A stretch of DNA of 64,000 nt from Corynebacterium renale (lineage in GTDB: Bacteria > Actinomycetota > Actinomycetes > Mycobacteriales > Mycobacteriaceae). Of the stretch, positions 52,256 through 58,892 are shown in pieces (the stretch's first letter is position 1; every line of letters begins with the position of its first letter). A model generated the notes under the pieces. The model was not told the origin of the DNA and ran no database searches. It saw nothing but the letters and a program-made list of their open reading frames with translations. Location of the stretch: the NCBI RefSeq assembly GCF_002563965.1, contig NZ_PDJF01000001.1, forward strand, positions 744,001 to 808,000. Reading direction: 5' to 3'. Both the position numbers and the translations under genes were made by a program.

Positions 52256-53611
52256 CTAGTGGTGGGTGGCCAGGGCGATGGCGTCTGGCAGGTGGGCGGC
52301 GATGTTGCTGGCGGTGGTTGGGCCAGGTCCGTACGCGGTTGCCGCGGAGAGCCACGACGCTAGAGCGTGTAACTGTACACCAGCGGTTGCGGCTTGGTGG
52401 GGGTCGCCGTAGCGGGCCAGGAGAGCGCCGATGCACCCGGAGAGTACGTCGCCGGAGCCGGGGGTGGCTGACCAGGAATGGCCGGCGTCAATCAGGGTGG
52501 TTGGCTGGCCTGGGCTGGCGACGGTCGTCGTGCGCCCTTTGAGCACGACCGTGGCGCCGAGTTCGGTGGCTAAGGCTTCGGTGCAGGCGCGTCGGTCGTC
52601 GTCGAGCGGGGAGAGGCGGGCGAATTCACCGCCGTGGGGTGTAAGGACAGTTGCAGCGTCCCGGCTAGAAAGGCGGGCGCGGAGGTCCGGGTTGTGGGCG
52701 AGGGTGGTGATGGCGTCGGCGTCGAGAAGCAAGGGCAGGTCCGTGTCGAGCAGGTCAGCGAGTTCGCCTGGGCGTTGACCGCGGCCGGGCCCGTACACGT
52801 ATGCCTGGCACTGGCCCAAGCGGTCAAGCGTAGGCGCGGCGACGACTTCCGGGGCGGCCGGGGCGCCGACGGCCCGCACCATCGCCGGTGTGGTGTGCAG
52901 GGCACCGAGCTGGGAAAGCAGGCTCGCGCCGGGGTACGTCTCGGAGCCGGCGATGATGCCAACAACTCCGCCGGTGTACTTGTTGTCGGCGGCACCGGGT
53001 TCGAAGTTGTCGTCGAGGTGCACGTTGGGGCCCGGGTTGAGTACGCGCGTGTACAGGGCACCCGTGGTCTCTGGGCGTAGGCCCACATCCGCCACGACGA
53101 GGGTGCCACAGTTGTGGTTGTACGCGTGTGCTTCCATGACGCCGGCGAACGTGACGGTGCACTCGGCGTGTACCGCATTCGGGCCGCCGGTGCCGGTCGG
53201 GATATCGACGGCCAGTACCGGCACGTCCGCGGGCATCGCCGGGTGGGGGCGCGTCGGGTCGGAGCCAAGGCCGGCGATTGCGTCGATCACCAGGTCGGGC
53301 ATGGCGGCGTATTCGCTTACCCGGCCGCCGGCGTGGCGGAACGCCGCCAGGGCGCGTTCGTGCGCTTTTCCGGCGGTGAGTTCGGCGGTGACGTCGTAGT
53401 CGGCGGCGAGTTCCGCCCCGGCGTAGAGTCCGTCGCCGCCGTTGCCGCCGGGGCCTACGTATATGTGTATACGCCTACCCGTGGTGAGGGTGCGGGCGGT
53501 TTCGGCGATGTGGTGTGCGGCGCGGCGCATGAGTTGGTCTGGTTCGGTTTGGTTGGCCAGTGCGTGGTGTTCGGCTGTGCGGACGGCTTTGTGTGTGACC
53601 AGGTTGTGCAT
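52256..53611 (-). CDS. nnr: Bifunctional NAD(P)H-hydrate epimerase / ADP-dependent dehydratase
   Basis: A 451-residue fusion. The N-terminal YjeF domain has the GPGGNGGDG loop. The C-terminal ribokinase-like domain has LTPHGGEFARL, VVLKGRTT and the catalytic ATPGSGDVLSG. It repairs hydrated NADH and NADPH. The N-terminal domain looks short compared with other bifunctional members. ATG 53611 is seven bases after TACCAT. It is divergent from the iron-controlled RNA/kinase region. Confidence 0.88.
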   Translation of the reverse strand: MHNLVTHKAVRTAEHHALANQTEPDQLMRRAAHHIAETARTLTTGRRIHIYVGPGGNGGDGLYAGAELAADYDVTAELTAGKAHERALAAFRHAGGRVSEYAAMPDLVIDAIAGLGSDPTRPHPAMPADVPVLAVDIPTGTGGPNAVHAECTVTFAGVMEAHAYNHNCGTLVVADVGLRPETTGALYTRVLNPGPNVHLDDNFEPGAADNKYTGGVVGIIAGSETYPGASLLSQLGALHTTPAMVRAVGAPAAPEVVAAPTLDRLGQCQAYVYGPGRGQRPGELADLLDTDLPLLLDADAITTLAHNPDLRARLSSRDAATVLTPHGGEFARLSPLDDDRRACTEALATELGATVVLKGRTTTVASPGQPTTLIDAGHSWSATPGSGDVLSGCIGALLARYGDPHQAATAGVQLHALASWLSAATAYGPGPTTASNIAAHLPDAIALATHH

Positions 53612-53660
53612 GTTTTTTATGGTAGTTCGGTGGGGTGTAAAAGTTTTTTTGGTTAGACCC

Positions 53661-53689
53661 TTGACGCTTCTGTGCAACTAGGTTAGGCT
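53661..53689 (+). promoter_or_regulatory. Strong promoter of the predicted small RNA
   Basis: TTGACG (53661-53666), a 17-bp spacer and TAGGCT (53684-53689). The predicted transcription start is about 53696. The DtxR-type box covers the -10. Confidence 0.75.
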
Positions 53690-53696
53690 TACCTAC
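53678..53696. promoter_or_regulatory. DtxR-type iron box
   Basis: CTAGGTTAGGCTTACCTAC matches the 19-bp DtxR consensus TTAGGTTAGGCTAACCTAA at 16 of 19 positions. It overlaps the -10 box of the promoter at 53661-53689, the classic position for repression by Fe(II)-DtxR. Confidence 0.82.
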
Positions 53697-53778
53697 GATC
53701 GCCTTTCGGGGTGGTCACAACGGGATAAAGTGAGTGCGAGGACACCCCAGTGGTTTATACCGCTGGGGTGTTCTTTTA
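53697..53778 (+). ncRNA. Predicted DtxR-controlled small RNA (about 80 nt)
   Basis: Inferred from promoter and terminator. Transcription from the DtxR-covered promoter would run about 45 bases and then meet a 12-bp stem (ACACCCCAGTGG pairing with CCGCTGGGGTGT, 53742-53753 and 53760-53771, 6-nt loop) followed by TCTTTT. No convincing reading frame lies inside. The downstream kinase gene has its own -10 (TACTAT, 53777-53782) eight bases before its ATG. The hairpin therefore ends a separate short transcript rather than attenuating the kinase mRNA. Iron-responsive sRNAs are known in other bacteria. Confidence 0.6.
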
Positions 53779-53790
53779 CTATTAATAGGT

Positions 53791-55230
53791 ATGCGCCGTC
53801 ATTCATTGCACATTAGCGCCAAAGAGGCTGTAGGACCGTACCTTATTGCTCTGGATGTGGGGTCGACTGCCTCACGTGGGGGTATTTACGATGCGTCGGG
53901 GCGGCCGTTGTCGGGGTCGAAGCAGCGTCGGGCGCACGCATTTACCACCGCCACGGATGGCACGTCGACCATTGACGCTGACCAGGTGGTCGAGGAGATT
54001 CGCAGCATCATCGAAGACATTAAGTCTTTCGCTGCGGAGGCTGGTATTGAGCTCAGTGCGGTGGCGTTCGATACGTTTGCGTCGTCGCTGGTGTGCGTGG
54101 CGGGTGGGGAAGCTATCACGCCGTGTGTGACGTATGCGGATGCCCGGTGTGCGGCTTACGTCGATAAGCTGGCGGAACTTGCCGGCGACGAGGCCGAGTA
54201 CCACGCGCGCACGGGTGTGCGTTTCCACACGTCGTACCTGCCGGCGCGGATTCTGTGGCTGGCGGCTGAGCACCCGGACGTGCTGGCGCGCACCGAAAAG
54301 ATGATGAGCCTGGGCGAGTACGTGTACTTCAAGCTCGCTGGCATCGAAGGTCAAGCCGTCGCGACGGCCGCGTGGGCGGGCATCCTCAACGCGCACACCG
54401 CCGAATATGACACCCCCATTCTGGAAGCGGTCGGCGCGAACATGGACTGGTTCGCCCCACTGAAGTTCCCGGATGAGCCCGCGCTTCACGACGGCCTCCG
54501 GTGGTTCCACGCCATCCCCGACGGCTGGTCCTCCAACGTGGGCTCCGGCGCAGTCGACGGCATCGTCGGCCTGTCCGCCGCCACCTCGGGCGCGGCCCGC
54601 CTCCTGCTTGACCACGTCCCGGAGAAAATTCCGACCGGCCTGTGGTGCTACCGCGTCGGACGCCACGAAGCGCTCCTCGGCGGGGCACTCAACGACGTTG
54701 GCCGCGCCATCTCCTGGCTCGAAACCAACCTCGCACCCGTCAGCGAGAAACAACGCACCGCCCTGCTTGCCGCCGACTACGAAGACACAATCCCCACCGT
54801 CCTGCCATTCTTCACCGGCGAACGCTCCACCGGGTGGCGCGGCGGCACACGCGCCGAATTCCACGGCGTCAGCGCGTCGACCACCCCCGCCGACCTGTGG
54901 CGCGGCACCCTCGAAGGCGTTGCCGTATCGTACGCGCGCGTCTGGGAACACATGCTGTCCACCGGGGCGCGCCCCAAAGCGGTGGTGGCGTCGGGAAGCG
55001 TCACCGCGACAGTCCCCGGGTGGTTGCAGCTGCTCGCCGACCAGCTCGACACCCCCGTCATCCCGCTCAACATGAAGCGCGCCACCCTCCGCGGCACCGC
55101 AGTCATCGCCATGGAGCAGCTTATCGACGCCCCTCCGGTGCCCGACCTGCCCTTCGGAAAACCCTACGCGCCGGGCAACACCACCGCCGCCCGCGCAGTC
55201 TACGACAAATTCATCCACCACTACGGATAA
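53791..55230 (+). CDS. FGGY-family carbohydrate kinase
   Basis: A 479-residue two-domain sugar kinase. The phosphate-1 motif is LDVGSTASRGGIYD near residue 19; the second domain contains GALNDVGRAISWLE, PFFTGERSTGWRG and the adenosine motif VVASGSVTATVPGWLQLLADQL. Gluconate or a pentulose is a plausible substrate but cannot be decided. ATG 53791 is preceded by TACTAT at 8 bases, so leaderless; an upstream GTG-type start would lie across the small-RNA terminator. The thioesterase gene follows after two bases. Confidence 0.82.
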   Translation: MRRHSLHISAKEAVGPYLIALDVGSTASRGGIYDASGRPLSGSKQRRAHAFTTATDGTSTIDADQVVEEIRSIIEDIKSFAAEAGIELSAVAFDTFASSLVCVAGGEAITPCVTYADARCAAYVDKLAELAGDEAEYHARTGVRFHTSYLPARILWLAAEHPDVLARTEKMMSLGEYVYFKLAGIEGQAVATAAWAGILNAHTAEYDTPILEAVGANMDWFAPLKFPDEPALHDGLRWFHAIPDGWSSNVGSGAVDGIVGLSAATSGAARLLLDHVPEKIPTGLWCYRVGRHEALLGGALNDVGRAISWLETNLAPVSEKQRTALLAADYEDTIPTVLPFFTGERSTGWRGGTRAEFHGVSASTTPADLWRGTLEGVAVSYARVWEHMLSTGARPKAVVASGSVTATVPGWLQLLADQLDTPVIPLNMKRATLRGTAVIAMEQLIDAPPVPDLPFGKPYAPGNTTAARAVYDKFIHHYG

Positions 55231-58773: not shown

Positions 58774-58792
58774 GAAAGGTAGCCTACCCTAA
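58774..58792. promoter_or_regulatory. Degenerate DtxR-like site upstream of htaA
   Basis: GAAAGGTAGCCTACCCTAA contains the AGGT...ACCC core of an iron box but is one base short at the centre compared with the 19-bp consensus. Its position upstream of a haem-uptake operon makes iron control plausible. Confidence 0.4.
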
Positions 58793-58892
58793 CGGGGTGC
58801 GCCTGTGATAGTCTCCACGGTAAAACTGCAAGGTATGCCTAGGCTTAGTAACCGTTGGCTTACCGAACCTTTATCCTGTGGAGTTTCTATAC

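What the first reader, a model, noticed from the sequence alone, without database searches (positions are those of the whole stretch)
53661..53778. Predicted iron-controlled small RNA upstream of an FGGY kinase
A near-consensus promoter (TTGACG-17-TAGGCT) is overlapped by a 16/19 DtxR box. About 45 bases later comes a 12-bp terminator stem with a TCTTTT tail, and no frame lies between. The kinase gene downstream has a separate -10 box beyond the terminator. Promoter, iron operator and terminator together predict an ~80-nt RNA made only in low iron, a possible functional analogue of RyhB-type regulators. Seen: all three elements. Known: DtxR consensus. Inferred: the RNA and its role.
Basis: partly seen in the sequence, partly recalled or inferred. 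Interest (0 to 1): 0.78.

Follow-up and report, generated by a model that had tools for sequence, protein, structure and literature searches.

The report
Iron-repressor box driving predicted small RNA
Between two bacterial genes lies a very good iron-repressor binding site on a promoter, followed 41 bases later by a strong stop signal; this predicts a small RNA made only when iron is scarce, but the RNA and its targets are unproven and it seems private to this species.

Summary
In a divergent intergenic region of a Corynebacterium genome, TTGACG-17-TAGGCT overlaps a DtxR box (16/19; 21.6 bits, beaten by 3 of 31 published C. glutamicum motifs; no equal score in 30 simulated 64-kb sequences). 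A 17-pair hairpin with a T tract follows 41 nt later. Of the 12 other boxes in this genome, 7 adjoin iron/heme acquisition genes; none has a comparable terminator. The kinase has its own promoter candidate and probable leaderless start past the hairpin. A free, DtxR-repressed RNA of about 81-83 nt is the best reading.

Corrections: the -10 is inherent in any DtxR box, the stem is 17 pairs not 12, and of the RNA's structures only the terminator beats chance. No homologue appeared in the other 241 genus genomes searched (blastn, covariance model; operator-plus-T-run patterns gave one doubtful look-alike). Target scans do not favour sdhC or leuC; acn is weak. The RyhB-like role stays open. The genome appears to lack RipA, the protein that represses iron enzymes in C. 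glutamicum and C. diphtheriae, which leaves a vacancy such an RNA could fill. A new member of a known kind (compare MrsI, IsrR, RyhB), unproven.

The parts
53661..53689 (+). sigma-A-type promoter TTGACG-17-TAGGCT
   Evidence: -35 5/6, -10 3/6 (TAnnnT); best pair on either strand over the box; the -10 is shared with the DtxR box
53678..53696 (.). DtxR operator CTAGGTTAGGCTTACCTAC, overlapping the -10 and the expected start of transcription
   Evidence: 16/19; 21.6 bits, beaten by 3 of 31 published motifs, 0 equal in 30 x 64 kb simulated; one of 3 sites with 2 or fewer mismatches to the W-consensus in the genome
53697..53777 (+). predicted DtxR-repressed small RNA of about 81-83 nt (5' end 53695-53697 inferred from the -10, 3' end inferred from the T tract)
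   Evidence: fold -42.3 kcal/mol, z -6.1 for 53694-53778; no transcript data
53697..53716 (+). predicted 5' hairpin of the RNA (8 pairs, UUCG loop)
   Evidence: -10.9 kcal/mol; not better than chance (130 of 1000 shuffles)
53738..53775 (+). intrinsic terminator, 17 pairs, loop of 4, T tract TTCTTTT
   Evidence: -31.1 kcal/mol
53754..53782 (+). separate promoter candidate of the kinase, TTTATA-17-TACTAT
   Evidence: 4/6 and 4/6
53791..55230 (+). FGGY-family carbohydrate kinase (substrate unknown), probably leaderless
   Evidence: Pfam FGGY_N and FGGY_C; below every NCBIfam equivalog cut-off; N-terminus lines up with relatives' starts by eye
52256..53611 (-). divergent gene: YjeF_N plus Carb_kinase domains (NAD(P)H-hydrate epimerase/dehydratase, nnr type)
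   Evidence: Pfam (run on 52256-53614); start ATG at 53611 read from the sequence

Best explanation
A small RNA gene under DtxR. With iron, DtxR sits on 53678-53696 over the -10 and the start site and blocks transcription. Without iron, RNA polymerase starts near 53695-53697 and stops at the hairpin about 81-83 nt later, releasing a free RNA before the kinase, which is transcribed from its own promoter. Shown by sequence: operator, promoter hexamers, terminator, absence of a good frame, kinase promoter candidate. Inferred: binding, the transcript, its iron control. Most likely function (inferred, about 0.35 on its own): a trans-acting, iron-sparing RNA that pairs with mRNAs of iron-using enzymes, taking over work that RipA does elsewhere in the genus.
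For: Operator strength. The same box search marks a real iron regulon in this genome: 13 places against 4 for the reversed pattern; of the 12 others, 7 lie upstream of iron/heme acquisition genes (three substrate-binding proteins of the Peripla_BP_2 family, one of them paired with a SIP-family protein; heme oxygenase; two HtaA proteins; an FTR1 permease) and two more upstream of SdhC and a WhiB. A DtxR orthologue exists: NCBIfam DtxR model 284.4 bits (cut-off 290), with all three Pfam domains of DtxR. Terminator in a divergent region, T tract on the + strand only, preceded by no annotatable + strand gene. Among the 12 other boxes only one has a T-followed hairpin of 7 or more pairs within 150 nt, and that has 8 pairs. 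RipA seems absent: one AraC-type (HTH_18) protein in the genome, which matches the five RipA-like proteins found in relatives at best 24% over 98 aa, while those five share 38-55% with each other.
Against: No transcript data. No relative of the RNA in the other 241 genus genomes by blastn or covariance model. No box of 16/19 or better beside 29 nnr and 29 kinase relatives. The 5' hairpin is no better than chance. Target scan: 373 of 386 gene starts pair better than sdhC, 193 better than leuC, 103 better than acn; with the linker alone 16 beat acn. Without the trivial antisense entry the ten best average -39.7 kcal/mol, like shuffled RNAs (-40.1). The linker lacks the C-rich runs of IsrR. Seven other strong T-tailed hairpins in 464 kb also follow no co-directional gene, so an orphan terminator is not rare by itself.
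Confidence: 0.7

Rival explanations
1. Leader of the kinase with a regulated terminator (attenuator): the DtxR promoter drives the kinase, and the hairpin is opened under some condition by pairing of 53708-53713 (GGGGTG) with the terminator's 5' arm.
For: An alternative fold exists on the partial transcript: -15.7 kcal/mol for 53697-53755 with GGGGUG paired to CACCCC.
Against: Equally extensive pairing with the terminator arm appears in 525 of 1000 shuffles of the 5' part. The kinase has its own promoter candidate and a start suited to leaderless mRNA; a read-through mRNA would have only a poor ribosome site. No Rfam match in the window. FGGY kinases have no known iron link (recalled).
Confidence: 0.12
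2. The operator serves the divergent nnr gene (or both genes), DtxR acting from upstream as an activator or as a roadblock; the short + transcript is a by-product.
For: DtxR can act as activator when bound upstream of the -35, as at ftn (PMC13001254, passages). Three of 29 nnr relatives (L021, L027, L029) carry a 13-14/19 half-matching sequence just upstream of the matched frame.
Against: The box lies 67-85 bp upstream of the nnr start, whose own -10 candidate TACCAT sits at a leaderless distance. No box of 16/19 or better in the 29 relatives. The box overlaps the + promoter as the tox operator overlaps its -10 and start (PMC5784534, passages). nnr repair enzymes have no known iron link (recalled).
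Confidence: 0.1
3. A real DtxR-repressed transcript that has no regulatory role: a recent, species-private product of an operator and a terminator that happen to be close.
For: No conservation, no clear targets, ordinary 5' part.
Against: Joint occurrence of a top-ranking box, a -35 at 17 bp and a 17-pair terminator is unlikely to be chance. Iron-sparing RNAs of different groups are not orthologous (PMC9410917, abstract), so lack of distant homologues is weak evidence.
Confidence: 0.25

Closest known systems
MrsI (ncRv11846), Mycobacterium tuberculosis
   Same: About 100-nt RNA of an actinobacterium whose promoter has a site for IdeR, the DtxR orthologue; made in iron starvation (PMC8628891, passages; the original paper PMC6016810 is not held)
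   Different: MrsI has a defined 6-nt seed and targets (hypF, bfrA); here no target is known. MrsI's sequence was not held or compared; the whole window gives no Rfam match
IsrR, staphylococci
   Same: Iron-regulator-repressed, Hfq-independent iron-sparing RNA of a Gram-positive (PMC9410917, abstract and outline)
   Different: Fur not DtxR; C-rich single-stranded regions, absent from the linker here; conserved in its genus, which this RNA is not
RyhB, Escherichia coli
   Same: Iron-repressed promoter and terminator-bounded intergenic RNA (recalled)
   Different: Fur-controlled, Hfq-dependent, no Rfam match here
RipA, C. glutamicum and C. diphtheriae
   Same: Same place in the network: made only when DtxR is off, then lowers iron-using enzymes such as aconitase and succinate dehydrogenase (PMC13001254, passages; ripA box in PMC1382209, section 7)
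   Different: RipA is an AraC-type protein; this is a predicted RNA

Membership tests
DtxR operator | 19-bp palindrome TTAGGTTAG(G/C)CTAACCTAA at a promoter | tested here: met
   16/19, 21.6 bits, 3 of 31 published motifs higher
DtxR operator | DtxR binds it in an iron-dependent way | not testable with these tools
   needs band shift; a DtxR orthologue is encoded
Iron-sparing sRNA (functional class: RyhB, MrsI, IsrR) | short intergenic transcript unit with own promoter and intrinsic terminator | tested here: met
   sequence only
Iron-sparing sRNA (functional class: RyhB, MrsI, IsrR) | transcript repressed by iron through Fur/IdeR/DtxR | not testable with these tools
   operator present, no RNA data
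Iron-sparing sRNA (functional class: RyhB, MrsI, IsrR) | pairs with mRNAs of iron-using proteins | tested here: inconclusive
   sdhC and leuC poor; acn beaten by 103 of 386 gene starts (42-nt 5' part) or 16 of 386 (linker)
Iron-sparing sRNA (functional class: RyhB, MrsI, IsrR) | conserved in related genomes with its operator | tested here: not met
   no relative found in the other 241 genus genomes; patterns gave only ordinary operators, coding hits and one doubtful look-alike
RyhB and the other Rfam 15 families | match to a covariance model at its gathering score | tested here: not met
   0 matches in the 64-kb window
Riboswitch or attenuator leader | anti-terminator competing with the terminator, beyond chance | tested here: not met
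   525 of 1000 shuffles pair as much with the terminator arm

The most novel reading that the evidence does not exclude
In a Corynebacterium without RipA, DtxR hands the iron-sparing task to a small RNA: the AraC-type repressor step of C. glutamicum and C. diphtheriae is replaced by an RNA step in the same position of the network. Since 19 of 41 sampled genus genomes have no HTH_18 protein at all, other RipA-less corynebacteria may each have their own unrelated RNA.
Probability: 0.22. Interest if true: 0.65.

Novelty: new member of a known kind. Interest (0 to 1): 0.42.

Why it matters
Iron-sparing RNAs are known under Fur (RyhB, IsrR) and IdeR (MrsI). In Corynebacterium the known iron-sparing step is a protein, RipA. 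In none of the listings did I see a DtxR-repressed small RNA of Corynebacterium; those searches cover open-access papers only, and I saw titles and the starts of abstracts, plus passages of a few. A confirmed case would show an RNA standing where relatives use a protein, and would give a small, testable regulator in an organism group without Hfq.

Tried and rejected
Homologues: blastn of 53640-53800 in 242 genomes gave 5 other genomes; the five matches are a box-containing stretch (L002), a hairpin (L003) and three stretches that lie inside long open frames (L004, L005, L006). A covariance model made from this one sequence gave, besides itself and its own reverse strand, 5 weak matches in 4 genomes (E 0.023-0.46), hairpin terminators with no box above 13/19 nearby. 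Strict core box plus TTTT at 56-86 nt: 10 of 242 genomes, own included. My first scoring of those hits read only one orientation of the loci; re-scored all hits in both. Own hairpin -31.1 kcal/mol; the rest -15.4 or weaker. The -15.4 (L096) is a second operator palindrome between two divergent genes that look HtaA-like by eye; -13.8 (L099/L111, genome G128) is a T-tailed hairpin at +84 in an intergenic stretch before a frame that looks like a transposase by eye, perhaps an insertion-sequence end: a doubtful look-alike, not followed; -13.4 (L097, L102) falls in or at the start of a frame. A looser box with TTTTT at 60-90 nt gave 6 of 242 and misses the window's own unit, which has TTTT only.\n\nTargets: complement of the linker GGGATAAAGTGAGTG with 2 mismatches gave 5 places besides itself, against 0 in the control. 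Two lie within 100 bp of each other, but the gene there is on the other strand, so its mRNA carries the same sense as the RNA and cannot pair. The other three fall in regions with long open frames and were not pursued. Duplex scan over 386 gene starts: uninformative; starts are first-codon guesses and the sample is 464 kb of 2.35 Mb. The apparent excess in its ten best came from the trivial antisense entry.\n\nAttenuator: rejected as special by shuffles. Plasmid collection: no match. Rfam: none. RipA: inferred from an AraC-type gene with a DtxR box upstream; no C. glutamicum RipA sequence was compared.\n\n

Full report
Where it is. The window is G000:C1:744001-808000 of a 2.35-Mb single-contig genome. 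The genus is Corynebacterium by inference: the closest named kinase relatives are Corynebacterium, and it has a DtxR of the actinobacterial type and HtaA proteins. The finding lies in a divergent intergenic region: on the - strand a gene with YjeF_N and Carb_kinase domains, on the + strand an FGGY kinase of unknown substrate (below every NCBIfam cut-off). The kinase ATG at 53791 fits the starts of relatives by eye.

What is there. On the + strand: TTGACG 53661-53666, 17 bases, TAGGCT 53684-53689; a DtxR box at 53678-53696; a hairpin of 17 pairs at 53738-53775 with a T tract. The box covers the -10 and the expected start, as the tox operator of C. diphtheriae covers its -10 and starts (PMC5784534, passages). 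It scores 21.6 bits on a matrix from 31 C. glutamicum motifs (PMC1382209, section 7 and passages), 3 of which score higher; no equal score turned up in 30 x 64 kb of simulated sequence. The -10 comes free with such a box, so the independent support for the promoter is the -35 at 17 bases (0.8% by chance) and the fact that no better pair lies on the other strand.

The box is a working kind of signal in this genome. The same consensus with up to 3 mismatches occurs at 13 places, against 4 for the reversed pattern. Of the 12 other places, 7 lie upstream of iron or heme acquisition genes, one upstream of sdhC (as in C. glutamicum, PMC1382209), one upstream of a WhiB domain, and 3 near a secreted protein without an informative domain, an FMN-dependent dehydrogenase and a glycosyltransferase. 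Two weaker boxes in the window itself (58774, 58829; 16.4 and 12.2 bits) precede an HtaA gene and a Peripla_BP_2 gene. Only one of the 12 others is followed within 150 nt by a T-tailed hairpin of 7 or more pairs, and that one has 8.

The transcript. Start near 53695-53697 and end near 53777 give 81-83 nt. The RNA folds at -42.3 kcal/mol, z -6.1, nearly all of it terminator; the 5' hairpin is not special. No good frame is present. Beyond the hairpin TTTATA-17-TACTAT places the kinase start at a leaderless distance; leaderless mRNAs make up 20% of C. diphtheriae genes (PMC5784534, passages). Strong hairpin terminators occur 27 times in 464 kb, so one within 100 nt of the box on the right strand has a chance of about 0.3%; 7 others in that sample also follow no co-directional gene, so an orphan terminator alone would prove little. 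A free RNA is therefore more likely than a kinase leader; the alternative pairing that could act as anti-terminator is matched by 525 of 1000 shuffles.

Is it conserved? Not in what is held. Among 242 genus genomes (own included) blastn and a covariance model of the whole unit find nothing but itself and unrelated hairpins, boxes or coding stretches. Neither 29 nnr nor 29 kinase relatives have a box of 16/19 or better nearby; one has 15/19 about 1 kb from its kinase. Pattern searches for box plus T run found no hairpin better than -15.4 kcal/mol against -31.1 here; one look-alike (genome G128) is left open. This lineage is isolated: the best nnr relative is 53% identical and the best kinase relative 59% over the matched stretches. 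So conservation neither supports nor excludes function; close relatives are missing.

What would it do? The network position is suggestive. In C. glutamicum and C. diphtheriae DtxR represses ripA, and RipA lowers iron enzymes such as Acn and Sdh when iron is short (PMC13001254, passages). Here only one AraC-type protein was found. It is not like the five DtxR-boxed AraC proteins from relatives that I take for RipA (38-55% among themselves; the own protein matches one of them at 24% over 98 aa). 19 of 41 genus genomes had no such protein at all. A DtxR-repressed RNA could fill that role as MrsI does under IdeR (PMC8628891, passages). But duplex scans do not pick sdhC or leuC, and acn only weakly with the linker alone (16 of 386 starts better), at a site about 35-50 nt before its likely start. 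The linker has no C-rich run like IsrR's (PMC9410917, abstract). The role stays a hypothesis.

Verdict. Observation confirmed with corrections; interpretation partly supported: DtxR-controlled short RNA likely (0.7), RyhB-like function open (about 0.35), RNA in place of RipA the boldest reading (0.22).

Noticed in passing
58774-58847 (window), upstream of the HtaA gene at 58878: Two weaker DtxR-like boxes (16.4 and 12.2 bits) before an HtaA gene, a Peripla_BP_2 gene and what read by eye as a permease and an ATPase: a heme-uptake locus 4-10 kb from the finding.
   Followed up: partly
L079 (G000:C1:438106-438124): A box with 2 mismatches to the W-consensus upstream of sdhC, as strong as the one in the finding; DtxR may control succinate dehydrogenase directly here, perhaps as activator.
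   Followed up: no
L108 (G000:C1:1341355-1341591): Only HTH_18 protein found in this genome, not RipA-like; its neighbour frames look by eye like a fumarase/tartrate-dehydratase-type enzyme. 19 of 41 sampled genus genomes have no HTH_18 protein.
   Followed up: partly
L083 (G000:C1:136226-136244): DtxR-like box near a frame with a WhiB domain; the box lies inside the longest reading of that frame but before the domain.
   Followed up: no
L099 (genome G128, C52:152535): Exact DtxR core box followed at +84 by a 13-pair T-tailed hairpin in an intergenic stretch, possibly an insertion-sequence end; the only look-alike of the finding among the pattern hits.
   Followed up: partly
L021, L027, L029 near 1477-1496: Three nnr relatives have a 13-14/19 DtxR half-match just upstream of the matched frame.
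   Followed up: no
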